Below, piece by piece: positions 1,083 through 49,900 of a DNA stretch of 64,000 nucleotides. The stretch lies in contig OZ036005.1 of assembly GCA_964035015.1 (NCBI GenBank), forward strand, positions 3,934,714 through 3,998,713, read 5' to 3'. Position 1 is the stretch's first letter, and each line of letters begins with the position of its first letter. The DNA is from Corallium rubrum. Its lineage: Eukaryota > Cnidaria > Anthozoa > Scleralcyonacea > Coralliidae. The notes beneath the pieces were generated by a model. That model had not been told where the DNA came from and did not search any database. It saw only the letters and a program-made list of their open reading frames with translations. Position numbers and translations under genes: made by a program.

Positions 1083-1997
1083 ATGAACGGGACTTTTAAC
1101 GGGACCTTTAAGGTGCCGTTCCTCGAGTTACAATTGACTGCAAATATCTTCGTGTTTCTTCTTTGCCTCACTTCAAATCTTCTAGTTGTCTACACCCTGA
1201 TCAAGGAACGCTTCATTCGAAAGCCTTTCGAATACATCCTCCTTCATCTTGCCATTTCTGATATAGGACTAGCATTGTGCAACACTCTATTAAATTTAAT
1301 GTATGTCTTAAACGACTATAGATGGACACTAGGACTTGTCGTGTGTAAACTTATTTTTCCAATGTTTCTCTACTTTTATTGGCTTGGTACCATAGATATT
1401 GTACTCATCTCATGTATTCGATTCAAGGCAGTTGTATATCCGTTTAAACCAAAAGTTAGCCTAAAGTCAGTGAAGAAATTCATCATTGCTAGCAATGTCT
1501 TATTATTGTGTAGTTATTATGTTTTTCTTGCTGTGAATGTGCCGTTAATTGATGGAGTGTGCTTCATGGCCCGCATCCTTGTTATTCGGACTTATTTCGA
1601 GTTGACACTTCTTAACATCCTACCAACGATTATTCTTGTTTTTACTAACTGTTCAATGGCAATCGTGTTATATCGTAGCAGCCATCAGATTGGCCTCAAC
1701 TCAACATCACAAAATGTGCGGAGAAAAGTTAATATAAAAGCATTCCAAATAAGCATTACAGTAATGATCTGTTACCTACTGGCTTCCTCTCCATTCCTAA
1801 TCGGCAGAGTCACTCTTATATCCGACATAGAAGAAGATGGCCCGGTTCATCGAGCGTGGTTAAGAAATTTCTTCACCCCGATAACCACAGTCAGCATGCT
1901 TCTGTCGAATTGTTCTGGAGCTTTTATTTATGGCATATTCAACGCAACTTTCCGACGTGGATATATAAAAGCACTCAACAACATTCTTCGACGTTGA
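1083..1997 (+). CDS. Intronless divergent class A (rhodopsin-like) GPCR, intact copy 1
   Basis: A 304-aa seven-transmembrane receptor in one exon, expected in the plasma membrane; the ligand is unknown. The short N-terminus has two N-glycosylation sequons (NGT, NGT). TM1 contains the LTSNLLVV asparagine and TM2 the LAISD aspartate. A Cys precedes TM3 (VVCKL). The DRY position reads IRF inside CIRFKAVVYP, so Arg is kept but the acidic residue is lost. TM5 has a proline (ILPTI), the TM6 CWxP position reads ASSP, and NPxxY is replaced by GAFIY. The C-terminal tail is very short and basic. The start is the ATG that gives MNGTFNGT, shared by all copies. It is 304 aa like its paralogue at 14544. 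The family is clear from the TM layout; the subfamily is not. Confidence 0.9.
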   Translation: MNGTFNGTFKVPFLELQLTANIFVFLLCLTSNLLVVYTLIKERFIRKPFEYILLHLAISDIGLALCNTLLNLMYVLNDYRWTLGLVVCKLIFPMFLYFYWLGTIDIVLISCIRFKAVVYPFKPKVSLKSVKKFIIASNVLLLCSYYVFLAVNVPLIDGVCFMARILVIRTYFELTLLNILPTIILVFTNCSMAIVLYRSSHQIGLNSTSQNVRRKVNIKAFQISITVMICYLLASSPFLIGRVTLISDIEEDGPVHRAWLRNFFTPITTVSMLLSNCSGAFIYGIFNATFRRGYIKALNNILRR

Positions 1998-9047: not shown

Positions 9048-9963
9048 TCAACGTCGAAGAATGTTGTTGAGTGTTTTTATATATCCACGCCGGATAGTTG
9101 CGTTGAATATGCCATAAATAAAAGCTCCAGAACAATTCGACAGAAGCATACTGACTATGGTTATCCAGCTAAAGAAATCTCTGAACCACGCTCGTTGAAC
9201 CGGACCATCTTCTATGTCAGATATATGACTGACTCTGGCGATTAGGAGTGGAGAGGAAGCCAGTAGGTAACAGATCATTACTGTAATGCTTATTCGGAAT
9301 GCCTTTATATTTACTTTTCTCCGCACATTTTGTGATGTTGAGTTGAGGCCAATCTGACGGCGGCTACGACATAACACGATTGCTATCGAACAGTTAGTAA
9401 AAACAAGAATAATCGTTGGTAGGATGTTAAGAAGTGTAATCTCGACGTAAATCCGAACAACAACGATTCGGGGGTTTATGTAGCACAGTCCATCAACTAA
9501 CTGCACATTCACAACAAGAAATACATAATAACTACACAATAATAAGACATTACTAGCAATGATGAATTTCTTCACTGACTTTAAGCTAACTTTTGGTTTA
9601 AACGGATTACAACTGACTTGAATCGAATACATGAGATGAGTACAATATCTATGGTACCAAGCCAAAAAAAGTAGATATACATTGACAAAATAAGTTTACA
9701 CACGACAAGACCTGGTGCCCATCTATAGTCGTTTAAGAGCAATGTTAAATTATACAAAGTATTAAACAATACTACTCCTGTATCAGAAATGGCAAGATGA
9801 ACGAGGATGTACTCGAATGGCTTTCGAATGAGGCGTTCCTTGATCAGGGTGTAGACAACTAGAAGATTTGAAGTGAGGCAAAGAAGAAACACGAAGATAT
9901 TTTTGCAGTCAATTGTAACTCGAGGAACGGCGCCTTGATGGTCCCGTTAAAAGTCCCATTCAT
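9048..9963 (-). pseudogene. GPCR paralogue with two opposite frameshifts
   Basis: A full-length copy of the local receptor family in inverted orientation. The start (minus strand, 9963) and the stop context match the intact genes. Relative to them, two extra A residues lie just after the codons for the residues before TM1 (about 9903), shifting the frame. Two bases (at) are missing in the TM3-TM4 loop (about 9608, gttgtaatccg instead of gttgtatatccg), which restores it. Everything from TM4 to the basic tail is intact and in the original frame. The shifts compensate in length but garble the TM1-TM3 segment, so the gene is probably dead unless the indels are sequence errors. Key motifs (loop Cys VVCKL, FNATIRRGY tail) remain. 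Confidence 0.8.
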
Positions 9964-14543: not shown

Positions 14544-15458
14544 ATGAACGGGACTTTTAACGGGACCATCAAGGTGCCGTTCTTCGCGTTACAATTTACT
14601 GCAAATATCTTCGTGTTTCTTGTTTGCCTCGCTTCAAATCTTCTAGTTGTCTACACCCTGATCAAGGAACGCCTCATTCGAAAGCCATTCGAATACATCC
14701 TCGTTCATCTTGCCATTTCTGATATAGGAGTAGTATTGTGCAACACTCTATTCAATTTAATGTATCTCTTAAACGACTATAGATGGGCACTAGGTCTTGT
14801 CATGTGTAAACTTGTTGTGCCAATGTATCTCTACTTTTTTTGGCTTGGTACCATAGATATTGTACTCATCTCATGTATTCGATTCAAGTCAGTTGTATAT
14901 CCGTTTAAACCAAAAGTTAGCCTAAAGTCAGTGAAGAAATTCATCACTGCTAGTAATGTCTTATTATTGTGTAGTTCTTATGTTTTTCTTGCTGTGAAGC
15001 TGCAGTTAATTGATGGAGTGTGCGACGTGAACCCCGGCTCCGTTGTTACTCACATTTACTTGGAGTTGACACTTTTTAACATCCTACCAGCAATTATTCT
15101 TGTTTTTACTAACTGTTCAATGGCAATCGTGTTATATCGTAGCAGCCATCAGATTGGCCTCAACTCAACATCACAAAATGTGCGGAGAAAAGTAAATATA
15201 AAAACATTCCGAATAATCATTACAGTAATGATCTGTTACCTACTGGCTTCTTCTCCACTCCTAATTGGCAGAGTCATTGTTGTATCTCACTTAGAAGATG
15301 GTCCGCTTCAACAAGCGTTGATAAAGGATTTCTTTACCCCGATAACCATAGTCAGTATGCTTCTGTCAAATTGTTCTGGAGCTTTTATTTATGGCATATT
15401 TAACGCAACTATCCGGCGTGGATATATAAAATCACTCAACAACATTCTTCGACGTTGA
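14544..15458 (+). CDS. Intronless divergent class A GPCR, intact copy 2
   Basis: A 304-aa paralogue of the receptor at 1083, with the same start (MNGTFNGT), seven TM segments and basic tail ending NNILRR. Conserved landmarks are N in TM1 (ASNLLVV), D in TM2 (LAISDIG), Cys before TM3 (VMCKL), the IRF form of DRY, proline in TM5 (ILPAI), ASSP in TM6 and GAFIY in TM7. Differences cluster in extracellular loop 2 (the segment around GVCDVNPGSVVTH) and in the loop before TM7, the usual ligand-facing regions. This suggests diversification of recognition after duplication, which is inference. Intronless. The adjacent relic and the shared flanks show it arose by segmental duplication. Confidence 0.9.
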   Translation: MNGTFNGTIKVPFFALQFTANIFVFLVCLASNLLVVYTLIKERLIRKPFEYILVHLAISDIGVVLCNTLFNLMYLLNDYRWALGLVMCKLVVPMYLYFFWLGTIDIVLISCIRFKSVVYPFKPKVSLKSVKKFITASNVLLLCSSYVFLAVKLQLIDGVCDVNPGSVVTHIYLELTLFNILPAIILVFTNCSMAIVLYRSSHQIGLNSTSQNVRRKVNIKTFRIIITVMICYLLASSPLLIGRVIVVSHLEDGPLQQALIKDFFTPITIVSMLLSNCSGAFIYGIFNATIRRGYIKSLNNILRR

Positions 15459-18529: not shown

Positions 18530-33186
<14,657 letters not shown>

Positions 33187-35479: not shown

Positions 35480-37375
35480 GGTTTACTAGTGAGGAAGGTT
35501 CACTAGTGAGGAAGGTTCACTAGTGAGGAAAGTTTACTAGTAAAGAAGGTTTACTAGTCAGGACGGTTTACTAGTGAGAACTAAGCTTTACAAGTGAGGA
35601 AGGTTTACTAGTGAGGAAGGTTTTACTATAGCGAGGAAGGTTTAGGTTTACTTTAGCGAGGAAGGTTTACTAGTGAAGAAGGTTTACTATAGTGAGGAAG
35701 GTTTACTATAGTGAGGAAGGTTTACTATAGTGAGGAAGGTTTACTATAGCGAGGAAGGTTTACTATAGTGAGGAAGGTTTACCATAGTGAGGAAGGTTTA
35801 CTATAGTGAGGAAGGTTTACTAGTGAGGAAGGTTTACTATCGTGAGGAAGGTTTACTATAGTGAGGAAGGTTTACTATAGTGAGGAAGGTTTACTATAGT
35901 GAGGAAGGTTTACTATAGTGAGGAAGGTTTACTATAGTGAGGAAGGTTTACTATAGTGAGGAAGGTTTACTATAGGGGGGAAGGTTTACTATAGTGAGGA
36001 AGGTTTACTATAGTGATGAAGGTTTACTATAGTGAAGAAAGTTTACTAGTGAAGAAGGTTTACTAGTGAGGAAGGTTCACTATATTGAGGAAGGTTTACT
36101 ATAGTGAGGAAGGTTTACTATAGTGAGGAAGGTTTACTATAGTGAGGAAGGTTTACTATAGTGAGGAAGGTTTACTATAGTGAGGAAGGTTTACTATAGT
36201 GAGGAAGACTTACTAAAGAGGATAGTGAGGAAGGTTTACTACAGTGAGGAAGGTTTACTATAGTGAGGAAGGTTTACTATAGTGAGCTAGAAGGTTTACT
36301 GTATAGTGAGGAAGGTTTACTACAGTGAGGAAGGTTTACTAGTGAGGATAGTGAGGAAGGTTTACTATATTCAGGAAGGTTTACTAGTGAGGAAGATTTA
36401 CTATAGTAAGGAAGGTTTACTATAGTGAGGAAGGTTTACTATATTGAGGAAGGTTTACTAGTGAGGAAGATTTACTAGTGAGGAAGGTTTACTATAGTGA
36501 GGAAGGTTTATACTATAGTGAGGAAGATTTACTAGTGAGGAAGGTTTACTATAGTGAGGAAGGTTTACTATAGTGAGGAAGGTTTACTATATTGAGGAAG
36601 GTTTACTAGTGAGGAAGGTTTACTGGTGAGGAAGGTTTACTATAGTGGGGAAGATTTACTAGTGAGGAAGGTTTACTAGTGAGGAAGGTTTACTATAGTG
36701 AGGAAGGTTTACTATAGTGAGGAAGGTTTACTATAGTGAGGAGGTTTACTAGTGAGTATAGTGAGGAAGGTTTACTACAGCGAGGAAGGTTTACTATAGT
36801 GAGGAGGTTTACTAGTGAGTATAGTGAGGAAGGTTTACTACAGCGAGGAAGGTTTACTATAGTGAGGAGGTTTACTAGTGAGTATAGTGAGGAAGGTTTA
36901 CTACAGCGAGGAAGGTTTACTATAGTGAGGAGGTTTACTAGTGAGGATAGTGAGGAAGGTTTACTACAGTGAGGAAGGTTTACTATAGTGAGGAAGGTTT
37001 ACTATAGTGAGGAAGGTTTACTAGTGAGGAAGGTTTACTAGTGAGGAAGGTTTACTATAGTGGGGAAGGTTTACTAGTGAGGATAGTGAGGAAGGTTTAC
37101 TACAGTGAGGAAGGTTTACTATAGTGAGGAAGGTTTACTATAGTGAGGAAGGTTTACTAGTGAGGAAGGTTTAGTAGTGAGGAAGGTTTACTAGTGAGGA
37201 AGGTTTACTATAGTGAGGAAGGTTTACTATAGTGAGGAAGGTTTACTATATTGAGGAAGGTTTACTAGTGAGGAAGGTTTACTAGTGAGGAAGGTTTACT
37301 ATAGTGAGGAAGGTTTACTAGTGAGGATAGTGAGGAAGGTTTACTACAGTGAGGAAGGTTTACTATAGTGAGGAG
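35480..37375. repeat. Minisatellite, left part (gaggaaggtttacta(ta)gt)
   Basis: About 100 units of 17 or 19 bp (gaggaaggtttactagt, gaggaaggtttactatagt). A higher-order unit of about 63 bp repeats about four times at 36736-36972. The array continues at 44491-45450 on the other side of the 7.1-kb element, in the same orientation, so one locus of about 2.85 kb was split. Confidence 0.95.
37370..37375. repeat. Candidate target-site duplication (left)
   Basis: GAGGAG directly before the element end AGTAGTAATAC. The same hexamer follows the right end. Because the array contains this hexamer in some units, coincidence cannot be fully excluded. Confidence 0.6.
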
Positions 37376-38403
37376 AGTAGTAATACCCCCCCATCGAGGG
37401 ACCAAAGGGATGCCGCCTCATTAAATATTAAATTTTTAATTATTCATTCTCATGCTCCTTTGCGAGCCTCTAACCCTAATCTCATTACGTCATTATGGCT
37501 CATGCTCCTATAGGACACTCTAACCCTAACTTCCCCCCTTACCCTGTCTTGTTGCTGAACCCCCGGTATTTACTACGTCATACTGATGTATTATTTATTC
37601 GTTCTCGTGCTCCTTTGGGACCCTCTAACCCTAATCTCATTACGTCATTATGGCTCATGCTCCTATAGGACACTCTAACCCTAACTTCCCCCCTTACCCT
37701 GGCTTGTTGCTGAACCCCCGGTAGTTACTACGTCATACTGACTTATTATTTATTCGTTGTCAGGCTCCTTTGGGCCGTCTTAACCCTAACTTTCCCCCTA
37801 AACCCTAGCTGTTACTCAACCTCCCTGGTATTCATACGTCATAACCGATAGCTCTCCGACTGATTTCCGAAGTTACGCCATTATCAAAAGGTACTCGGCT
37901 TATATCCTTATAAGTAATAGTAATCACCTTTTCATTTAAACTCTTTACCCTACTGACAGTCGACAGTTGTGGGACACGTAGACGTACAGAGCATGCGTAC
38001 ACTAAACTTTAACAAAATAGACGTTCTTTACAAGGAACTAAAGAGAAATTGATAGAGGCACTTCATATTTTTTATCTCAAAGCATGTCTCGATGAGTATA
38101 GAGAGTTTTGAGCAGCCGAAGTGTCTGAATTGGCAGAGCTCGTATAGATTTAGATTAATAGCATATAATGAATATTATATTAGGTTTAGAACCTAAATAT
38201 TCAATCACCCTAGAATCATTGCTAGCTAAACCCTTGTTTATAAGTGAAGAAATTGTAAGAAGATAGAATGAGGAGTCAAATCTAAAAGCCATAAGAACGT
38301 TTTTAAGTGTCGATATATAAACGAAATATTATTTGGCCGCGGGACGGCTGAGTATCGACTTGAATTAATAGCATACATGAATATTATATTAGTTAGAACT
38401 TAA
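37376..38403. repeat. Left terminal repeat, subterminal non-coding zone
   Basis: Contains five TAACCCTAA motifs between 37468 and 37790, inside a roughly 155-bp unit present about two and a half times (catgctcctataggacactc, tgctgaacccccggta, tactacgtcatactg). The CRE-like TACGTCAT recurs. Two related AT-rich blocks (attaatagcata...gaatattatatta) lie at 38153 and 38365, the second just before the 65-codon ORF, and may be promoter repeats. Confidence 0.75.
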
Positions 38404-38601
38404 ATGGCCATCTTTACCCATTTACTTGGAGATATGTGCCGAATTGTCGCTTATTTGGCTTTAGTTTATAAAGTAAACAATGCCTTGAATGAAGAAATCG
38501 TTCGGCAAGCTGTTCGAAAGACATTGAAACACTTTCTTCAGAGGGGTTTGCCAGAATATAAACTGTCAGGGGTTAAACGGCGGACTCGGCTATTTTATTA
38601 A
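38404..38601 (+). CDS. Element ORF, 65 aa, unknown (left-arm copy)
   Basis: A small basic protein with a hydrophobic stretch (RIVAYLALVYKV) and a Lys/Arg-rich C-terminus (KLSGVKRRTRLFY). Its copy in the other arm (43271-43468) is identical. It points inward, opposite to the 224-codon ORF. Identity between arms alone does not prove it is expressed. No family recognised. Confidence 0.5.
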   Translation: MAIFTHLLGDMCRIVAYLALVYKVNNALNEEIVRQAVRKTLKHFLQRGLPEYKLSGVKRRTRLFY

Positions 38602-38796
38602 CGTCGTCAAGCATCTTGTTAATGTTGCTACGGCTGATATTTGCATATTTATCCTGAGTGCACGTGCAGGAGACAAAAGAAAAACTCATTAGGGGCAATT
38701 AAGAGGATTAAGCGCTTAGGCAGGTCTAGGCGAGAAAGTCATTAGCGTGTACTTTGCATAAGACAGAATTCACAACAATCAGTTTAAAATATTTAT

Positions 38797-39471
38797 TTAC
38801 ACAAAAAACTCTTGATTATTTAGTGATCTATCGGTAACACTAGCATATGGGCATACAGTACATCTTATAATCCGAAGGCATGGATCATGAGTCTTGAATT
38901 CTGTACCACAAACATTACATATCAGATTTCGAATAACGCATTTGTTAAAATATTTCCACAAACACTTAGGACACTCAATTACATGTGTAAAGTTAACAGG
39001 ATTCTGACAACGTTCGCAATCAACAGGTTCGTCAATTATAGAATTTTCTGATTCTATTTCGGTGTAATCTTTATCGTGTTCGGAATCTTCTTCGGAGGAA
39101 GTTTCTTCGTTTTCGCTCTCTGATTCTGTTTCTTCTTCTGCCTGCGCCAACATTGTCAGCACTCGAACATTTTCGATAAGGTTTTTGTCAATGTTAATGT
39201 CGGCGAGTCCTTTTACAAATACATTTAGACCAGCTGGTTCGGGAATTCCTGAGAAGTAAGGTGATACGCAGTATTCTACCAATTCGGCTATTTTTGTGTT
39301 TGGTATAGTTCTTCCTTGATACACAATTTCTCCTTTGGGATTCCATGTTAAGTTGACATAGGACGCGAGTAAACTATTCAGCAAAGAAGACGCTGTCGCT
39401 TCATCCACTCCGTAGTCAAAGTGTGACAGTATTTCTTTAACACGAAAATCATCATGTAATCTTTCTCCCAT
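38797..39471 (-). CDS. Element ORF, 224 aa, acidic linker and Cys-rich C-terminus (left-arm copy)
   Basis: Function unknown. Residues 1-110 form a conserved-looking domain with NLTWNPKGEIVYQGRTIPN. Residues 111-146 are an acidic Glu/Ser linker. Residues 152-207 hold ten cysteines, mainly as CxxC pairs (CERC, CPKC, CNVC, CTVC), likely a multi-zinc ribbon or RING-like fold. Nucleic-acid or protein binding is inference. It lies 44 bp downstream of the 105-codon ORF, same strand, suggesting one transcript. The protein is identical to the right-arm copy at 42401-43075. Confidence 0.75.
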   Translation of the reverse strand: MGERLHDDFRVKEILSHFDYGVDEATASSLLNSLLASYVNLTWNPKGEIVYQGRTIPNTKIAELVEYCVSPYFSGIPEPAGLNVFVKGLADINIDKNLIENVRVLTMLAQAEEETESESENEETSSEEDSEHDKDYTEIESENSIIDEPVDCERCQNPVNFTHVIECPKCLWKYFNKCVIRNLICNVCGTEFKTHDPCLRIIRCTVCPYASVTDRSLNNQEFFV

Positions 39472-39515
39472 CGTGTTCAGGGTTCGAATGAGGGCCTTTA
39501 CAAAATATCGTTCTT

Positions 39516-39833
39516 TTATATTAGTTCTGCGAGTCCTTCTAAAACAGGACCAAGTAAGACACCAAGAAATCCTGCACCTTTTTGAATCAGTATCTCCTTT
39601 TTTCTCATAAAACTACTTCGGGGACTAGCCAAAGTTGATATGTCGTCGCTATAAGGCTTAACGTCTTCAAGCAAAGCAGGTGATAATTGATATTGCATTG
39701 ACCAAAAGTTAAACATACAATCACAAATGCATCTAATTTGCTCGGGGCTTGCAGTCTCCAACAGAGCTCGCTGTTGAATAGGTTCACTTGTACATAAAAG
39801 TTCAAGAAACGGTTTGTGCTTTTTGATCAACAT
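39516..39833 (-). CDS. Element ORF, 105 aa, unknown (left-arm copy)
   Basis: Helical small protein with PIQQRALLETASPEQIRCI near the N-terminus and a Gly/Leu-rich hydrophobic end (QKGAGFLGVLLGPVLEGL). Small ORFs of this general look accompany virus-like elements in invertebrate genomes, but I cannot name a family with certainty. It differs from the right-arm copy only at residue 91 (Gly here, Asp there). Downstream of the ATPase ORF and the polypurine array, same strand. Confidence 0.7.
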   Translation of the reverse strand: MLIKKHKPFLELLCTSEPIQQRALLETASPEQIRCICDCMFNFWSMQYQLSPALLEDVKPYSDDISTLASPRSSFMRKKEILIQKGAGFLGVLLGPVLEGLAELI

Positions 39834-39890
39834 CTCTATTTGACAGTCAGTGTCTAAATGAGGAAAACGCTACCAAAACACACATTTTAA

Positions 39891-40141
39891 GAGGAGGAGA
39901 AAGAGGAGGAGGAGAAAGAGGAGGAGGAGGAGGAGGAGAAAGAGGAGGAGGAGGAGAAAGAGGAGGAGAAGGAGGAGGAGGAGGAGGAGAAAGAGGAGGA
40001 GGAGGAGGAGGAGGAGGAGGAGGAGGAGGAGAAAGAGGAGGAGGAGGAGGAGGAGGAGGAGAAAGAGGAGGAGGAGGAGGAGGAGGAGGAGAAAGAGGAG
40101 GAGAAGGAGAAAGAGGAGGAGAAGGAGGAGGAGGAGGAGGA
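39891..40141. repeat. Polypurine (GGAGAAAGA-type) array, left
   Basis: About 250 bases of only A and G on the plus strand, with gaggaggagaaagaggagg-type units. It is the inner edge of the left arm and the mirror of 41631-41981. Frames across it (poly-Leu, poly-Ser/Pro) are artefacts. Confidence 0.95.
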
Positions 40142-40230
40142 ACAAATAAACACACACACATACATACAAAAGCATTTAGCTTAAAAATATTTATTTCGGT
40201 TTTCGTTCAAACATATACATATAAAAAGTT

Positions 40231-41613
40231 TTAGTAAGGTCTGCTTCTTAGATTATATTTAGGCGTTTTTATTTTAAAGGTAGCGTGGTAGTCTTTCTTG
40301 TCTTCTGGTGATAATTGTGATACATCTTCTTTTGTCATGGGTAAATATTTTGATCTAGTCATCAATAGATGATGTTCATACTCTTCTCTATCATCTGAGG
40401 TCATCTTTGCCAAGTCGCTTTCTTTCCAATCCGAAGAGCTTTCCCAATTATGAAAGAAATTATGTTTAAGCGTCGGTTGTTCAACGGTAGGAGGCGGTGT
40501 TACAAAATAGGTTTTAGGTGTAGCATGGAAACTCCACGGAAGATCGTCAGTTTCTTGCTTTATCTCTGGTGTCAAATTTTCTGTATTTTGCTGAGTTTGA
40601 AGATTAGTCAGAGGTTGAGACTGATTATGCAGTTGGTTTTGAAAGGTCAGAAAACGTCCTAGCTGATTGGAGTAAAGTATGTTCTTTTCGTCAGGTGTTA
40701 ACTGTGGCGCTTGTACAATATCTTGCATTTTTTGTTCTGTATTGTACATGGCATTAACGATTGGAGGTAATTGATAGGATTGCTTTTGTATGAAACTACC
40801 CAGCTGTTGCTGCAGGCTGGAGGTATTTTCTCCAGGTAGAACATTGGTCTTGAAGCGGTGATCGTCGTCCGTAGTCGGTTTCAGATCAAGCATTAAATAA
40901 CCATGAGGACGAGTTGTGGCTTCCTCGTAACTCTTCATAAATTCATGGACATGACCTGGGTTCACCTGCCGTGCCAAGACAGAAATTTGTTGCTTATCCC
41001 TCGGAGACTTGAATAGTACGATATAGTGTGCGTTGAGGCTGATGTTTCTTGTTTCTTTGCCTTGGTGAAATATATTCTGAACAATGTAGATCACGGAGAG
41101 ATTCCTGTGATGACTTCCCTTAGTAAATAAATTAGCAATACGTTTATCTCTTCCTGACTGATCCATGAGATCATCGAGGACGATCAGGTTACGTTGAGAG
41201 ACTTCAAGAAAATTATCAGAGTCAATGTCGGAAGGTATACCCTCATAGAATTCGATGCCTGGCATTGTTTTGATCATTTCTAAATACATGGGCTGCCATT
41301 GCCCATAGCACCAAATGATACGTTCGGGAGGAGGATTAATCGTAGTTTTGGCGTTTTCAAGAAGCGTTTTCACCCATACTGTTTTACCACTCTGTGTGCA
41401 TCCAGCGACAATGCAAGTAAATGGATGCTGCATGACTGTTGCGTCATTGAGAAGATGTTCTGGTCTTGAATAAGTACTGTTTTTATGGAAATTTTTTATA
41501 TGACGTTGCATGTTGAATAGTGTAGAAAACGTTTTTCCACAAGTGCTGCAGACATAAGACATGTTCACTCGTTGAAGAGCATGAGCAGAATAAACATTTC
41601 TAGAGATTGTCAT
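40231..41613 (-). CDS. C2H2 zinc finger plus packaging-type (A32/FtsK-HerA-like) ATPase
   Basis: The only unique gene of the 7.1-kb element, 460 aa. A C2H2 finger (CSTC, then RHIKNFH, residues 22-43; spacing C-x2-C-x12-H-x4-H) precedes an ATPase core. Walker A is GCTQSGKT (71-78), Walker B is LIVLDD (143-148), and YIVQNIFHQG is a likely sensor-region motif. This fits genome-packaging ATPases of Polinton-like, adintovirus and NCLDV-type viruses, which pump DNA into capsids. That role is known for the family and inferred here. The C-terminal third (about 270-460) is Gln/Pro/Lys-rich with no recognised fold. A second Met at residue 18 is an alternative start. The frame is intact, suggesting a recent or active copy. 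Assignment is by motif only. Confidence 0.8.
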   Translation of the reverse strand: MTISRNVYSAHALQRVNMSYVCSTCGKTFSTLFNMQRHIKNFHKNSTYSRPEHLLNDATVMQHPFTCIVAGCTQSGKTVWVKTLLENAKTTINPPPERIIWCYGQWQPMYLEMIKTMPGIEFYEGIPSDIDSDNFLEVSQRNLIVLDDLMDQSGRDKRIANLFTKGSHHRNLSVIYIVQNIFHQGKETRNISLNAHYIVLFKSPRDKQQISVLARQVNPGHVHEFMKSYEEATTRPHGYLMLDLKPTTDDDHRFKTNVLPGENTSSLQQQLGSFIQKQSYQLPPIVNAMYNTEQKMQDIVQAPQLTPDEKNILYSNQLGRFLTFQNQLHNQSQPLTNLQTQQNTENLTPEIKQETDDLPWSFHATPKTYFVTPPPTVEQPTLKHNFFHNWESSSDWKESDLAKMTSDDREEYEHHLLMTRSKYLPMTKEDVSQLSPEDKKDYHATFKIKTPKYNLRSRPY

Positions 41614-41630
41614 ATTATTTATTTCTCCTC

Positions 41631-41981
41631 TTCTTTCTCCTTCTCCTCCTCTTTCTCCTCCCCCTCCTCCTCTTTCTCCTCCTCCTCTTTCTCCTCCTCC
41701 TCCTTCTCCTCCTCTTTCTCCTTCTCCTCCTCTTTCTCCTCCCCCTCCTCCTCCTCCTCCTCCTCCTCTTTCTCCTCCTCCTCCTCCTCTTTCTCCTCCT
41801 CCTCCTCCTCTTTCTCCTCTTCCTCCTCCCCCTCCTCTTTCTCCTCCTCCTCCTCCTCTTTCTCCTCCTCCTTCTCCTCCTCTTTCTCCTCCTCCTCCTC
41901 CTCCTCATCCTCCTCTTTCTCCTCCTCCTCCTCTTTCTCCTCCTCCTCCTCTTTCTCCTTCTCCTCTTTCTCCTCCTCCTC
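41631..41981. repeat. Polypyrimidine array, right (mirror of 39891-40141)
   Basis: About 350 bases of C and T on the plus strand, the inverted and longer counterpart of the left array. It separates the divergent ATPase (minus) and 105-codon ORF (plus). A promoter role is possible but unproven. Confidence 0.95.
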
Positions 41982-42038
41982 TTAAAATGTGTGTTTTGGT
42001 AGCGTTTTCCTCATTTAGACACTGACTGTCAAATAGAG

Positions 42039-42356
42039 ATGTTGATCAAAAAGCACAAACCGTTTCTTGAACTTTTATGTACAAGTGAACCTATTCAACA
42101 GCGAGCTCTGTTGGAGACTGCAAGCCCCGAGCAAATTAGATGCATTTGTGATTGTATGTTTAACTTTTGGTCAATGCAATATCAATTATCACCTGCTTTG
42201 CTTGAAGACGTTAAGCCTTATAGCGACGACATATCAACTTTGGCTAGTCCCCGAAGTAGTTTTATGAGAAAAAAGGAGATACTGATTCAAAAAGGTGCAG
42301 GATTTCTTGATGTCTTACTTGGTCCTGTTTTAGAAGGACTCGCAGAACTAATATAA
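42039..42356 (+). CDS. Element ORF, 105 aa (right-arm copy)
   Basis: Same protein as at 39516-39833 except Asp at residue 91. It starts 58 bases after the array edge and is followed 44 bases later by the 224-codon ORF on the same strand. In this arm it is divergent from the ATPase gene, whereas in the left arm it follows it. Confidence 0.7.
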   Translation: MLIKKHKPFLELLCTSEPIQQRALLETASPEQIRCICDCMFNFWSMQYQLSPALLEDVKPYSDDISTLASPRSSFMRKKEILIQKGAGFLDVLLGPVLEGLAELI

Positions 42357-42400
42357 AAGAACGATATTTTGTAAAGGCCCTCATTCGAACCCTGAACACG

Positions 42401-43075
42401 ATGGGAGAAAGATTACATGATGATTTTCGTGTTAAAGAAATACTGTCACACTTTGACTACGGAGTGGATGAAGCGACAGCGTCTTCTTTGCTGAATAGTT
42501 TACTCGCGTCCTATGTCAACTTAACATGGAATCCCAAAGGAGAAATTGTGTATCAAGGAAGAACTATACCAAACACAAAAATAGCCGAATTGGTAGAATA
42601 CTGCGTATCACCTTACTTCTCAGGAATTCCCGAACCAGCTGGTCTAAATGTATTTGTAAAAGGACTCGCCGACATTAACATTGACAAAAACCTTATCGAA
42701 AATGTTCGAGTGCTGACAATGTTGGCGCAGGCAGAAGAAGAAACAGAATCAGAGAGCGAAAACGAAGAAACTTCCTCCGAAGAAGATTCCGAACACGATA
42801 AAGATTACACCGAAATAGAATCAGAAAATTCTATAATTGACGAACCTGTTGATTGCGAACGTTGTCAGAATCCTGTTAACTTTACACATGTAATTGAGTG
42901 TCCTAAGTGTTTGTGGAAATATTTTAACAAATGCGTTATTCGAAATCTGATATGTAATGTTTGTGGTACAGAATTCAAGACTCATGATCCATGCCTTCGG
43001 ATTATAAGATGTACTGTATGCCCATATGCTAGTGTTACCGATAGATCACTAAATAATCAAGAGTTTTTTGTGTAA
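42401..43075 (+). CDS. Element ORF, 224 aa, Cys-rich (right-arm copy)
   Basis: Protein identical to the left-arm copy. Identity at protein level across the arms, with only sparse nucleotide differences elsewhere, shows either recent duplication or conversion. Confidence 0.75.
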   Translation: MGERLHDDFRVKEILSHFDYGVDEATASSLLNSLLASYVNLTWNPKGEIVYQGRTIPNTKIAELVEYCVSPYFSGIPEPAGLNVFVKGLADINIDKNLIENVRVLTMLAQAEEETESESENEETSSEEDSEHDKDYTEIESENSIIDEPVDCERCQNPVNFTHVIECPKCLWKYFNKCVIRNLICNVCGTEFKTHDPCLRIIRCTVCPYASVTDRSLNNQEFFV

Positions 43076-43270
43076 ATAAATATTTTAAACTGATTGTTGT
43101 GAATTCTGTCTTATGCAAAGTACACGCTAATGACTTTCTCGCCTAGACCTGCCTAAGCGCTTAATCCTCTTAATTGCCCCTAATGAGTTTTTCTTTTGTC
43201 TCCTGCACGTGCACTCAGGATAAATATGCAAATATCAGCCGTAGCAACATTAACAAGATGCTTGACGACG

Positions 43271-43468
43271 TTAATAAAATAGCCGAGTCCGCCGTTTAAC
43301 CCCTGACAGTTTATATTCTGGCAAACCCCTCTGAAGAAAGTGTTTCAATGTCTTTCGAACAGCTTGCCGAACGATTTCTTCATTCAAGGCATTGTTTACT
43401 TTATAAACTAAAGCCAAATAAGCGACAATTCGGCACATATCTCCAAGTAAATGGGTAAAGATGGCCAT
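43271..43468 (-). CDS. Element ORF, 65 aa, unknown (right-arm copy)
   Basis: Identical to the ORF at 38404-38601. It converges toward the 224-codon ORF with about 195 bases between the stops. Confidence 0.5.
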   Translation of the reverse strand: MAIFTHLLGDMCRIVAYLALVYKVNNALNEEIVRQAVRKTLKHFLQRGLPEYKLSGVKRRTRLFY

Positions 43469-44490
43469 TTAAGTTCTAACTAATATAATATTCATGTATG
43501 CTATTAATTCAAGTCGATACTCAGCCGTCCCGCGGCCAAATAATATTTCGTTTATATATCGACACTTAAAAACGTTCTTATGGCTTTTAGATTTGACTCC
43601 TCATTCTATCTTCTTACAATTTCTTCACTTATAAACAAGGGTTTAGCTAGCAATGATTCTAGGGTGATTGAATATTTAGGTTCTAAACCTAATATAATAT
43701 TCATTATATGCTATTAATCTAAATCTATACGAGCTCTGCCAATTCAGACACTTCGGCTGCTCAAAACTCTCTATACTCATCGAGACATGCTTTGAGATAA
43801 AAAATATGAAGTGCCTCTATCAATTTCTCTTTAGTTCCTTGTAAAGAACGTCTATTTTGTTAAAGTTTAGTGTACGCATGCTCTGTACGTCTACGTGTCC
43901 CACAACTGTCGACTGTCAGTAGGGTAAAGAGTTTAAATGAAAAGGTGATTACTATTACTTATAAGGATATAAGCCGAGTACCTTTTGATAATGGCGTAAC
44001 TTCGGAAATCAGTCGGAGAGCTATCGGTTATGACGTATGAATACCAGGGAGGTTGAGTAACAGCTAGGGTTTAGGGGGAAAGTTAGGGTTAAGACGGCCC
44101 AAAGGAGCCTGACAACGAATAAATAATAAGTCAGTATGACGTAGTAACTACCGGGGGTTCAGCAACAAGCCAGGGTAAGGGGGGAAGTTAGGGTTAGAGT
44201 GTCCTATAGGAGCATGAGCCATAATGACGTAATGAGATTAGGGTTAGAGGGTCCCAAAGGAGCATGAGAACGAATAAATAATACATCAGTATGACGTAGT
44301 AAATACCGGGGGTTCAGCAACAAGACAGGGTAAGGGGGGAAGTTAGGGTTAGAGTGTCCTATAGGAGCATGAGCCATAATGACGTAATGAGATTAGGGTT
44401 AGAGGCTCGCAAAGGAGAATGAATAATTAAAAATTGAATATTTAATGAGGCGGCATCCCTTTGGTCCCTCGATGGGGGGGTATTACTACT
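43469..44490. repeat. Right terminal repeat, subterminal non-coding zone
   Basis: Inverse complement of 37376-38403. Five TTAGGGTTA motifs lie between about 44084 and 44400. It lacks seven bases present near 37449 of the left arm and ends tattactact. Confidence 0.8.
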
Positions 44491-44496
44491 GAGGAG
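44491..44496. repeat. Candidate target-site duplication (right)
   Basis: GAGGAG immediately after the ACT end, followed by gtttactatagtgagc of the minisatellite. Confidence 0.6.
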
Positions 44497-45450
44497 GTTT
44501 ACTATAGTGAGCTAGAAGGTTTACTGTATAGTGAGGAAGGTTTACTACAGTGAGGAAGGTTTACTAGTGAGGAAGGTTTAGTAGTGAGGAAGGTTTACTA
44601 TAGTGAGGAAGGTTTACTATAGTGAGGAAGGTTTACTATTGTGAGGAAGGTTTACTATAGTGAGGAAGGTTTACTACAGTGAGGAAGGTATACTAGTGAG
44701 GAAGGTTTACTAGTGAGGAAGGTTTACTATAGTGAGGAAGGTTTACTAGTGAGGAAGGTTTACTTGTGAGGAAGGTTTAATAGTGAGGAAGGTTTACTAG
44801 TGAGGAAGGTTTACTATAGTGAGGAAGGTTTACTATAGTGAAGAAGGTTTACTAGTGAGGAAGGTTTTCTAGTGAAGAAGGTTTACTAGTGAGGAAGGTT
44901 TACTACAGTGAGAAAGGTTTCCTAGTGAGGAAGGTTTACTATAGTGAGGAAGGTTTACTAGTGAAGAAGGTTTACTCAGTGAGGAAGGTTTACTAGTGAG
45001 GAAGGTTTACTATAGTGAAGAAGGTTTACTAGTGAGGAGGGTTTACTAGTGAGGAAGGTTTACTAGTGAGGAAGGTTTACTAGTGAAGAAGGTTTACTCA
45101 GTGAGGAAGGTTTACTAGTGAGGAAGGTTTACTATAGTGAGGAAGGTTTACTAGTGAGGAAGGTTTACTATAGTGAGGAAGGTTTACTAGCCTATAGTGA
45201 GGAAGGTTTACTAGTGAGGAAGTACTAGTGAGGAAGGTCTACTATTGAGGAAGGTTTACTAGTGAGGAAGGTTTACTAGTGAGGAAGGTTTACTATAGTG
45301 AGGAAGGTTTACTATAGTGAAGAAGGTTTACTAGTGAGGAAGGTTTACTAGTGAGGAAGGTTTACTATAATGAGGAAGGTTTACTATAGTGAGAAAGGTT
45401 TACTAGGGTGAAGAAGGTTTACTATAGTGAGAAAGGTTTACTAGTAAGGT
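44491..45450. repeat. Minisatellite, right part
   Basis: Same 17- and 19-bp units and orientation as 35480-37375, with more of the short tactagt type. Confidence 0.95.
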
Positions 45451-46914: not shown

Positions 46915-49900
46915 CTAAAAAAATTCGACAGCGTTATATTATTTACGTATACTGCCTCAGCTGGAGTCCCAATAGCTCAGTGGTTAAGGATAAAGGACTG
47001 GGGGCTAATTATCCTTACTTGCAGCCAGTGGCTGAATTACGAAGGACGCAGATCAACGTGGCCGTGTCGAGGCATATCAAGGCGCTCCAGGCAGTCGCCA
47101 TACGACACAGTTCAGACCACGGATCACAGCTAAGATGTAGGTGTTGATTTTATTGAGGGAGGAAAACCGGAGAACCCCGCGAAAACCCTTCGACGCACAG
47201 GAGAGATCAACGACAACTCTACCCACATGAGTTCAAAGTTCGATAACGGGGTGATTCCCAAGCGGCCACCCATCCAAGTACTAACCCCGTTTAACCTGTC
47301 TTAACTTTTTGGTGAGAGTCAGTGCGCTAACAGCACATGCCACCCGTGCTTCCCTGGGTTCGATTCCCGGTTGGGGCAGTCAGAAAACTTTTCTCTACAG
47401 CAGTGATTCGACCCTGCGAGCAGAGCCTTCTTTTCCTTATTACTTCGCTGAGAGCGAGGAACATTGCCAGAAATTTTCTCAGCGTACGATTCCACGGACT
47501 GGCGTACGGATTTCCGAAAATGTGACACCCAGAATATATAGCTACCTAACCTGAGCCGCTCATCGGCTACTAGTCAGCTGGGCACCGCAATTATCTGAGA
47601 AGGGGAGACCTGAGACCGTGACACCGACTCCCCCCAAGAATCATGCACCTTTCACGCATTTTCTCCCCACCGGAGCACTTACAGCTTGATTTACAAACTG
47701 AAATCTTTTAGCCAAGCTGCTGAGCAGCAACTACATAACCAGGGACGTGGCCAGGATTTTGAAAGGGGGGGAGCCGAAGTCAAAATAAATTTTTAGGGGG
47801 GTCTGGGGGCATGCTCCTCCGGGAAATTTTGAAATCGCTGAAATGCCATTTCCTGGCTTTTGGAGGAAGATTTTACAGACTCTAAAGGTTAAAAAACCTC
47901 ATATAAAATACTCAAAATGCATACACTCAGTAGATTGATTAAATGAATACACTGTTTACAGTTTATTTCCTGACACAATTGATATTGCATCCGTTTTGTA
48001 GTTACATGTCTGTTGTTTTATATCAAAAGGGGGAGCCGCGGCTCCCCCGGCTCCCCCCTGGCTACGTCCCTGTACATAACTCGTAAAGCAAAACAATAAT
48101 AACAAACCTTTGAGAGCCTGGTACACTGTGCTTCTGGGATTGACGTACTCTGCGCAAACGCAGCCGGGTTGATTATTCAGATCAAGGAAATCCCTGGAAC
48201 GATAAACTGTGCCGGGCATTATCGAAGTTTGCGTCGTAAAGTACGTATTAAACTTGTGCGCGTCACTCAGTTTTTGCCAATCCCACCAAATTTTATCAAT
48301 GAAATCGTGATGTAGAAAGAACTCTGGCGCCGAGGCAGAATCTATGGTACACATCGTGCCATCAATGATGCAGTGGACAAGATCGTGGAACGCTCTTCGC
48401 AAAAGAAATTCAAAATCGATAAACTGCGTAGCATTCCCGTTGTCCATGATTAGAGCTTGAACCGCCATAGCATCCGGGGCTCTTCTGTTAAAATCCCGCT
48501 TAAGGCACCCTCCCCCGGCGCTTTGAATCAACGACCACACTGTTTCGCGGAAAGGCCCTGTGTTCACGCAGTTTTCGCTCCCATTACCGTTCCCGCCAAT
48601 ACCGTGTGGCCCTGGGTGCCACACATCGCTCGAGAAAGGATCGGCGCCGACTAAACTCCAGTCCCAGTACGGCACGGTCACGCGACAGTCGATTTCCCGA
48701 AGGAGGTTTTCATACTGGAGAATGAACCAGCGATGCCACGGAAGAAAGAAATCTAATTCGTGAATATTACTGAAAAACATGGTCCTATGGTCCGTAAGCA
48801 GGGATTCGTATCTTTGTTTGTACAAAGGATCTGTTGATACTGTTTTCACGGTGTTCACATAGCGAATCCTTTCGACGGTGGTCATGTCTGTAAATTCCTT
48901 TCGCAGTCTACAACACTGCGCCAATTTTCCTCCCACACATTTACAACGTCTGCCACATTGGTCATAAACTGTTTGACCATAGGAACATCGATTAGAAATA
49001 TCTAAAACAAGAAATGAAACCATAACCGATCAATCGTTTGTCTGAATCAGTAGAAACTGTTCCGCGGAACTGGGCGCAAAGAAGACAAATTATTATCCCA
49101 TAACTTTTGGAGGCTAAAACAAGATTGAATATAGAGGATGAATTCAGCTTTGAGCAATCTTAACAGAGTTGCTCAAACTAATGCAGTCAATAGGAGAGAG
49201 ACTCTCTTCTGTTCACACCACCCTATCTTTAGCAGTGTGTCAATCTGCTAGCATCGTCCTGATGATTATTATGAAGGACGTTTAGTCAATAATCGTCCCT
49301 CATAAATACTGGGGTGAGAGACATTTAGAACTAAGCGTCCCTCATCCAGTATTGATGAGGGAACTGAGACATTAACGTCTGTATTCTAAAAGCTCACAGC
49401 TCACTCACACTCACACTCACACTCACACTCACACTCACACTCACACTCACACTCACACTCACACTCACACTCACACTCACACTCACACTCACACTCACAC
49501 TCACACTCACACTCACACTCACACTCACACTCACACTCACACTCACACTCACACTCACACTCACACTCACACTCACACTCACACTCACACTCACACTCAC
49601 ACTCACACTCACACTCACACTCACACTCACACTCACACTCACACTCACACTCACACTCACACTCACACTCACACTCACACTCACACTCACACTCACACTC
49701 ACACTCACTCACACTCACACTCACACTCACACTCACACTCACACTCACACTCACACTCACACTCACACTCACACTCACACTCACACTCACACTCACACTC
49801 ACACTCACACTCACACTCACACTCACACTCACACTCACACTCACACTCACACTCACACTCACACTCACACTCACACTCACACACACACACACTCACACAC

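What the first reader, a model, noticed from the sequence alone, without database searches (positions are those of the whole stretch)
37376..44490. A 7.1-kb virus-like element that is almost entirely a palindrome with duplicated genes
Seen: 2.5-kb inverted arms carrying three ORFs each, with essentially identical proteins, and one unique central ATPase ORF. Known Polintons are usually 15-20 kb with non-coding terminal repeats and encode PolB, integrase, protease and capsid proteins. Here all of those are missing, yet the frames are intact. It may be a satellite or non-autonomous Polinton-like agent in which most of the genome is terminal repeat, or a snap-back deletion product fixed by integration.
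Basis: partly seen in the sequence, partly recalled or inferred. Interest (0 to 1): 0.9.

Follow-up and report, generated by a model that had tools for sequence, protein, structure and literature searches.

The report
Palindromic, possibly satellite-like Polinton (Maverick) element
A short virus-like element in an animal genome is built as a mirror-image copy of part of a larger capsid-encoding virus-like transposon (a Polinton), and many similar mirror-image elements are scattered through the same genome, which suggests that folded-back copies of such viruses can themselves spread.

Summary
Window 37376-44490 is a 7115-bp element with 2.76-kb inverted arms (98.7% identical), a unique central A32-type ATPase ORF, (AGT)2...(ACT)2 ends and a perfect 6-bp target duplication GAGGAG. 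It is not a one-off. Its 27-bp terminal motif occurs 870 times in the same genome (backwards control 0); of the 100 places listed, 86 form facing pairs 4-15 kb apart. Of 20 pairs examined, 19 have a perfect 6-bp duplication and 15 are palindromes. The genome also carries Polintons with PolB, integrase and capsid-type genes, the same motif, and homologues of the window genes: likely helpers. The best reading is a non-autonomous Polinton derivative made by fold-back replication and integrated in trans. The window-type ATPase is 43% identical to that of the resident Polinton L036, shows purifying selection (omega about 0.11 on inner branches), and was not found in a full-length element in capped lists. 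That favours a persisting satellite-like lineage over debris, without proving it. Replication, packaging and helper dependence are inferred. New variant of a known kind.

The parts
37370..37375 (.). target-site duplication GAGGAG, left copy
44491..44496 (.). target-site duplication GAGGAG, right copy; dropping one copy restores a satellite unit (one base short)
37376..40139 (+). left inverted arm, begins AGTAGTAATACCCCCCC
   Evidence: 2767 columns, 98.7% identity
41736..44490 (-). right inverted arm, ends GGGGGGGTATTACTACT
37403..37429 (+). 27-bp terminal motif shared with larger Polintons of the same genome
44437..44463 (-). 27-bp terminal motif, right copy
37436..37789 (+). subterminal tandem repeat, 155-bp unit, 2.3 copies (mirrored at 44083-44422)
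38404..38601 (+). ORF65, partial homologue of the 122-aa protein of Polinton L036, which weakly matches adenovirus E1B-19K (PF01691, below cut-off)
43271..43468 (-). ORF65, right-arm copy
38797..39471 (-). ORF224, related to the PZ-position protein (243 aa) of L036; at least 150 close copies in the genome
42401..43075 (+). ORF224, right-arm copy
39516..39833 (-). ORF105, homologue of the PM-position protein (111 aa) of L036
42039..42356 (+). ORF105, right-arm copy (one residue different)
39891..40141 (+). GAGGAG-type purine repeat on the 3' side of the ATPase gene
41625..41981 (+). CTCCTC-type repeat on the 5' side of the ATPase gene; junction to the ATPase conserved in 28 of 30 loci (window included)
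40231..41613 (-). central unique ORF: C2H2 zinc finger plus A32-type (packaging-type) ATPase, 460 aa; likely start at 41562

Best explanation
A non-autonomous Polinton/Maverick derivative. Shown: a TSD-flanked palindrome that keeps only an accessory ORF (ORF65) and the ATP-PM-PZ genes of a Polinton, is multi-copy, and shares its terminal motif with larger resident Polintons. Inferred: during protein-primed strand-displacement replication a nascent strand folded back near the repeat next to the ATPase gene and copied itself, so that one Polinton end was duplicated onto both sides and PolB, integrase, capsid and protease were lost. Because the cis signals lie at the ends, the palindrome can be replicated, possibly packaged, and integrated by proteins from the resident Polintons. 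The window type looks like an inherited palindromic lineage that keeps a working ATPase, so a satellite-like agent is more likely than fresh debris.
For: Ends (AGT)2//(ACT)2 and a 6-bp TSD as in vertebrate Mavericks. A 27-bp terminal motif occurs 444+426 times in the genome, control 0. Of 20 facing pairs examined (of the first 22 on contig C1), 19 have perfect 6-bp TSDs and 15 are palindromic, with arm segments 97.9-100% alike. 24 of the 30 best-scoring ATPase loci, the window included, have inverted flanks. L036 has the Maverick gene order with homologues of ORF65, ORF105, ORF224 and the ATPase. The PolB end also forms palindromes, C49 with a TSD read from the printed junctions and C14. In L042 and L043 the axis lies in the ATPase or at its first codons, with spacers of about 118 and 42 nt. 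Arms differ far less within a copy (ORF224 0.29 of 672 nt, n=7) than between copies (7.3, n=183). ATPase omega is 0.114 on inner branches (66 synonymous, 29 nonsynonymous changes) and 0.248 on terminal ones. The 5' ATPase junction is shared by 28 of 30 loci.
Against: Nothing here shows DNA replication, packaging or helper dependence. Selection could have acted in an unseen full-length parent: the genome searches score only the best candidates (92 of 2179 for the ATPase), so absence of a window-type full-length element is not proven. The two of 30 loci with a stop (L022, L026) were left out of the omega counts, and the ORF224 counts are small (5-15 changes per class). ORF105 is near neutral (pN/pS 0.89). 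ORF65 is only a fragment of its homologue. 36 of 150 listed ORF224 places have no listed inverted partner. In L037, L040 and L041 no close gapless symmetry was found within about 230-300 nt of the centre. Arm divergence does not correlate with ATPase terminal branch length (rho 0.26, p 0.26, n=20), so arm homogenisation by gene conversion is not excluded. One of the 20 pairs, itself a palindrome, had no TSD; three TSDs were TATATA, which is uninformative repeat.
Confidence: 0.7

Rival explanations
1. Fixed debris: each palindrome is an independent snap-back defective genome of a full-length Polinton that happened to be integrated; the apparent selection on the ATPase was acting in the parent.
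For: Axes and loops vary widely (35 ORF224 pairs without a listed ATPase between them, inner gaps 1.5-4 kb; no ATPase in L040 and L041, only its first codons in L043, two pieces in L042). Fold-back occurs at both Polinton ends. Some copies carry stops (4 of 92 listed ATPases).
Against: The window-type ATPase is 43% identical to that of L036, and the polymerase and capsid lists placed it in no full-length element, though they are capped. The ATPase junction is shared by 28 of 30 loci, with about 8% synonymous divergence among 28 of the 30.
Confidence: 0.25
2. A segmented (multipartite) Polinton-like virus whose PolB and ATPase segments are separate palindromes with common ends.
For: None of 69 PolB clusters taken from the listing has a listed window-type gene within 15 kb. 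PolB palindromes and ATPase palindromes share the terminal motif.
Against: L036 and L038/L044 carry the core genes in one element. PolB palindromes hold broken ATPase pieces at the axis. No capsid-bearing palindromic class was seen beyond two possible pairs.
Confidence: 0.04
3. Chromosomal inverted duplication, or two head-to-head insertions, after integration.
For: Inverted repeats can arise by fold-back at breaks (papers seen in the listing only).
Against: The TSD flanks the whole palindrome here and in 14 of the 15 palindromes, at unrelated sites.
Confidence: 0.02
4. Assembly artefact.
For: Long inverted repeats can be misassembled; no reads were available.
Against: Many copies with different flanks and TSDs; arms that differ at a few positions.
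Confidence: 0.01

Closest known systems
Polinton/Maverick (vertebrate Mavericks, PMC8097293; section 7 and search passages read)
   Same: (AGT)2//(ACT)2 ends, 6-bp TSD, inverted terminal repeats, the ATP-PM-PZ gene group.
   Different: 7.1 kb against 12.7-24.6 kb; arms 2.76 kb against TIRs of 46-1447 bp; genes lie inside the repeats; no PolB, integrase, protease or capsid genes.
Adintoviruses (PMC11071296; passages read)
   Same: The resident L036 has an rve integrase with C-terminal chromodomain, as described for this group.
   Different: Membership of L036 in the group was not tested (PolB OTU domain, hexon); the window element has no PolB or hexon.
Snap-back / copy-back defective viral genomes (PMC11077978: listing and start of abstract seen; DNA examples such as adenovirus end duplications are recalled)
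   Same: One genome end duplicated in inverted form around a centre; helper needed.
   Different: Here they are chromosomally integrated, numerous, and one lineage keeps an ATPase that shows purifying selection.
Virophages and phage satellites (recalled; listing seen)
   Same: Small agent that would use a helper's capsid and replication proteins.
   Different: No capsid gene; the relation is to Polintons in animal chromosomes; helper dependence not shown.
Foldback/Galileo-type transposons (recalled)
   Same: Very long inverted repeats.
   Different: Genes are Polinton genes and the TSD is 6 bp; no direct comparison was run.

Membership tests
Polinton/Maverick (autonomous) | protein-primed PolB | tested here: not met
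   no hit in the window by tblastn with a resident PolB in two pieces; no PolB-size ORF in the element
Polinton/Maverick (autonomous) | retroviral-type (rve) integrase | tested here: not met
   L036 has one
Polinton/Maverick (autonomous) | capsid proteins and protease | tested here: not met
   capsid and protease names in L036 rest on position, length and recalled resemblance, since Pfam gave none
Polinton/Maverick (autonomous) | A32/FtsK-type packaging ATPase | tested here: met
   Pox_A32 32.2 bits over cut-off 22.8; 745 homologues
Polinton/Maverick (autonomous) | (AGT)2//(ACT)2 end motif | tested here: met
Polinton/Maverick (autonomous) | 6-bp target-site duplication | tested here: met
   GAGGAG; 19 of 20 relatives
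Non-autonomous Polinton derivative | shares ends with a larger gene-complete element in the same genome | tested here: met
   27-bp motif exact in L036 and in 870 places; only the left end of L036 was fetched
Non-autonomous Polinton derivative | mobilised by the full-length element's enzymes | not testable with these tools
   inferred from ends and TSD only
Snap-back genome | inverted duplication of one parental end around a short or unique centre | tested here: met
Snap-back genome | a parental genome of the same lineage from which it arose | tested here: inconclusive
   only families with ATPases 30-47% identical over the aligned part were found; lists capped
Satellite virus | multiplies only with a helper | not testable with these tools
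   gene content implies it
Satellite virus | own genes under selection as a separate lineage | tested here: inconclusive
   omega 0.114 inner, 0.248 terminal for the ATPase, but selection in an unseen parent is not excluded

The most novel reading that the evidence does not exclude
A long-lived lineage of palindromic Polinton satellites in an animal: the mirror-image form is itself the heritable genome, both ends being regenerated from one arm at each replication. It lives on resident Polintons' polymerase, integrase and capsids and keeps its own diverged packaging-type ATPase (with PM- and PZ-like proteins), possibly to steer helper capsids towards its own short DNA, as some phage satellites redirect packaging (recalled analogy).
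Probability: 0.3. Interest if true: 0.9.

Novelty: new variant of a known kind. Interest (0 to 1): 0.75.

Why it matters
Polintons are thought to replicate as linear protein-primed molecules, but that rests mostly on gene content (general knowledge). A large set of integrated snap-back palindromes with intact target duplications would be a fossil record of aberrant replication intermediates and fits that model. If the palindromic lineage is maintained by selection, animals have virophage-like or satellite-like parasites of Polintons, and the ATPase becomes a testable packaging determinant. Nothing like it showed in the titles and abstract starts listed by my ten searches of the held open-access library; the listings were partial (20 of 44 papers for Polinton with palindrom) and most subscription journals are not held.

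Tried and rejected
IMG/VR scans with the ATPase and with a 22-sequence alignment confirmed no locus. PHROGs gave only two weak hits at the zinc finger, the PDB hits all lay at the zinc finger. ORF224 has just 2 database relatives, and its AlphaFold model is poor (mean pLDDT 43.4), so no fold search was run. A host gene search named no organism: the host is taken for an animal by its 7tm receptors and tyrosinases, species unknown. A candidate window-type full-length element at C52 was rejected: the ATPase there belongs to a neighbouring ATPase-ATPase palindrome. The one at C213 has the ATPase on the wrong side of the capsid gene and was not resolved. The arm-age correlation was inconclusive. 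End coordinates guessed from ORF224 missed most ends: 2 of 16 pieces held the motif (checked in 68); they were replaced by the motif search.
Full report
Observation. The element 37376-44490 is real. Its arms (37376-40139 and 41736-44490) align over 2767 columns at 98.7%; outside the purine repeat they differ by 3 substitutions and one 6-base indel. Each arm holds ORF65, ORF224 and ORF105; the centre is unique and holds a 460-aa ORF with an A32-type ATPase (over the Pfam cut-off) and a C2H2 finger (just under it). The ends read AGTAGTAATACC...GGTATTACTACT and are flanked by GAGGAG on both sides. Joining the flanks gives back a unit, one base short, of the 17-19-bp satellite in which the element sits. 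These are the end motif and 6-bp duplication described for vertebrate Mavericks (PMC8097293: section 7; passages). Among proteins of the resident Polinton L036 and a PolB from L031, only the homologues of ORF65, ORF105 and the ATPase are found in the window by tblastn. ORF224 was not hit that way but is related to the 243-aa PZ-position protein in a direct comparison (27% over 120 residues, E 7e-12 for that single comparison).

Other copies. The genome holding the window (474 Mb, 312 contigs, unnamed) has at least 92 window-type ATPase loci, the ones scored among 2179 candidates; 4 of the 92 contain a stop. Of the 30 best, window included, fetched with 1.5-kb flanks, 24 have inverted flanks and 22 have at least part of both ORF105 and ORF224 on both sides. 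ORF224 has at least 150 loci at 98-100% identity among 1313 candidates. Clustering the listed places gave 35 ORF224 pairs with no listed ATPase between them, 19 ORF224-ATPase-ORF224 sets and one more with an extra ORF224, one ORF224 triple, 28 single ORF224 places and 8 clusters with an ATPase and only one ORF224. So 114 of 150 ORF224 places have a listed partner and 36 have none, though partners may simply be unlisted. It also gave 8 divergent and one convergent ATPase pair, one ATPase triple and 43 single ATPases, and 4 PolB pairs among 69 PolB clusters (73 PolB places taken from a listing that was itself cut). No listed PolB lay within 15 kb of a listed window-type gene. PolB pairs are undercounted: L037 is a PolB palindrome of which only one half was listed.

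A sample by ends. The 27-bp motif just inside the ends occurs 444 times forward and 426 times reverse, against 0 for the backwards control. Only the first 100 places, on contig C1, were listed; 86 of them form 43 facing pairs, 30 shorter than 8 kb (4.0-7.3 kb) and 13 of 9.6-14.7 kb. I examined about 1.5 kb from each end of 20 of the first 22 pairs. 19 of 20 have a perfect 6-bp target duplication, of 17 different sequences (TATATA three times). 15 of 20 are palindromic: 12 over about 1.4 kb or more, and 3 with larger offsets between the arms. The other five are two short mosaics (722k, 19308k), two ordinary long elements (53k, 6875k) and one 11-kb hybrid (5379k) with a window-type ORF224 at one end and L036-type genes, including an integrase, at the other. 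So the palindromic form is the common one in this sample, which comes from one contig.

Full-length relatives. L036 (C8) begins with the same end motif and reads GRF protein, 122-aa protein, rve integrase with chromodomain, 265 aa, 157 aa, 448-aa capsid candidate, 176-aa protease candidate, then on the other strand 243 aa, 111 aa, ATPase, repeat and the end of PolB; the PolB domain itself follows just beyond the fetched stretch. Its right end was not fetched, so 'full-length' is inferred. This is the vertebrate Maverick order INT-mcp-PW-MCP-PRO facing PolB-ATP-PM-PZ. Capsid and protease names are by position and recalled resemblance; Pfam gave them no family, and PolB was identified in the relative L031. 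The capsid candidate gave 95 matches from 94 scored of 378 candidates, 83-100% identical, 82 without a stop and nearly all single. A second family is L038/L044 and a more distant one L045. ORF65 matches the 122-aa protein (43%), ORF105 the 111-aa protein (30%), and the ATPase that of L036 (43%). The 122-aa protein matches adenovirus E1B-19K (a Bcl-2-like protein, recalled) at E 9e-4, below the curated cut-off.

How it arose. The window element equals one Polinton end with an accessory ORF and the ATP-PM-PZ group, minus the capsid-integrase module, with the PolB side replaced by an inverted copy. The opposite outcome also exists: C49 carries PolB in both arms (99.8% over 5.8 kb) with a broken ATPase at the centre and a GACCTC duplication read from the printed junctions, and C14 is similar. 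In the ATPase- and PolB-bearing types looked at, a minisatellite or triplet repeat lies on the 5' side of the ATPase, near the axis. L043 keeps only the first codons of the ATPase in a spacer of about 42 nt, and L042 folds inside the ATPase with a spacer of about 118 nt; in L037, L040 and L041 the gapless measure found no close symmetry within about 230-300 nt of the centre. Short spacers are what fold-back priming on a displaced strand would leave. Protein-primed strand displacement in Polintons is inferred from the PolB type (established knowledge), not shown here.

Debris or lineage. Between 28 window-type ATPase copies pN/pS is 0.185; on a tree omega is 0.114 on inner and 0.248 on terminal branches. 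The two loci with stops, L022 and L026, were left out, which leans towards selection. ORF224 gives 0.26 on 13 loci (0.226 and 0.452 on inner and terminal branches, from 11 and 24 changes), while ORF105 is near neutral (0.89, 24 loci). The junction between the purine repeat and the ATPase start is shared by 28 of 30 loci. No window-type ATPase or ORF224 was found in a full-length arrangement in the lists made: of 94 L036-family and 39 further capsid places, one neighbour at C213 is on the wrong side and one at C52 proved to be a separate ATPase-ATPase palindrome. Arms differ far less within a copy than between copies (ORF224 0.29 of 672 against 7.3; ORF105 0.88 of 315 against 4.4), and three of 20 copies show 1.3-3.3% arm divergence. 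That fits arms identical at insertion that drift later, though the rank correlation with ATPase branch length is weak (rho 0.26, p 0.26), and L029 has identical arms on a long branch.

Relatives elsewhere. The ATPase has 745 homologues, of which 120 were listed. The 15 best are 60-64% identical over 95-96% of the query, in records without an informative name; a named coral relative (Oculina patagonica) is 47% identical. Of the 22 aligned, those closest to the window share its C-terminal tail. A 41-residue stretch of that tail resembles the N-terminal part of the L036 243-aa protein (27%, E 0.001 in a single comparison), a hint only. No viral contig was confirmed.

Literature. Ten searches showed no title or abstract start on palindromic Polintons; of 44 papers holding both 'polinton' and 'palindrom' only 20 were listed and none was read for this. 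I read passages of PMC6431247, PMC8097293 (section 7 in full), PMC11071296 and PMC12220804. The last searched cryptophyte elements with a TIR filter of 100 bp to 8 kb, so long-arm elements may lie in its supplement, which I could not open. Polinton papers in subscription journals were not searchable.

Verdict. A real, multi-copy, palindromic, non-autonomous Polinton derivative; most likely a snap-back genome integrated in trans, and possibly a maintained satellite lineage.

Noticed in passing
window 35644-37374 and 44483-45449: The element is inserted inside a tandem satellite with a 17-19-bp unit (AGGTTTACTATAGTGAGGA).
   Followed up: partly
window 1083-1997, 9048-9665, 14544-15458: Three related single-ORF genes, two tested and both 7tm_1 receptors; the middle one is shorter.
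   Followed up: partly
window 20517-20990 and 47956-49023: Two tyrosinase-domain ORFs on the minus strand on either side of the element, the first partial.
   Followed up: partly
window 24585-25169: Reverse transcriptase fragment (RVT_1, 3.6e-26).
   Followed up: no
L031, L035 (C49) and L037 (C14): Palindromes of the PolB end of a Polinton, the first with a GACCTC target duplication.
   Followed up: partly
G000 C56:5454221-5461581 and C30:408887-415356: Two inverted pairs of capsid-gene pieces, possible palindromes of the capsid side.
   Followed up: no
L073, L074 (C1:5378708-5389757): Hybrid 11-kb element: window-type ORF224 at one end, L036-type genes and integrase at the other, with a GACAAC duplication.
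   Followed up: partly
L063, L103 (C1:53313-67144): Long element with L036-type capsid, ATPase and PM genes but a PolB only 33% (N part) and 66% (C part) identical to that of L031: module exchange.
   Followed up: partly
G000 C52:5738470-5739789: A third capsid-candidate type (48% to L038), not in the listed L036-family places.
   Followed up: no
L006, L046 (C95): A window-type ATPase next to an oppositely oriented ATPase 43% identical to it, probably another mosaic.
   Followed up: no
G000 C1:68-76 Mb and many short contigs: In the PolB listing, a separate PolB family with frames of up to 1368 residues is frequent there.
   Followed up: no
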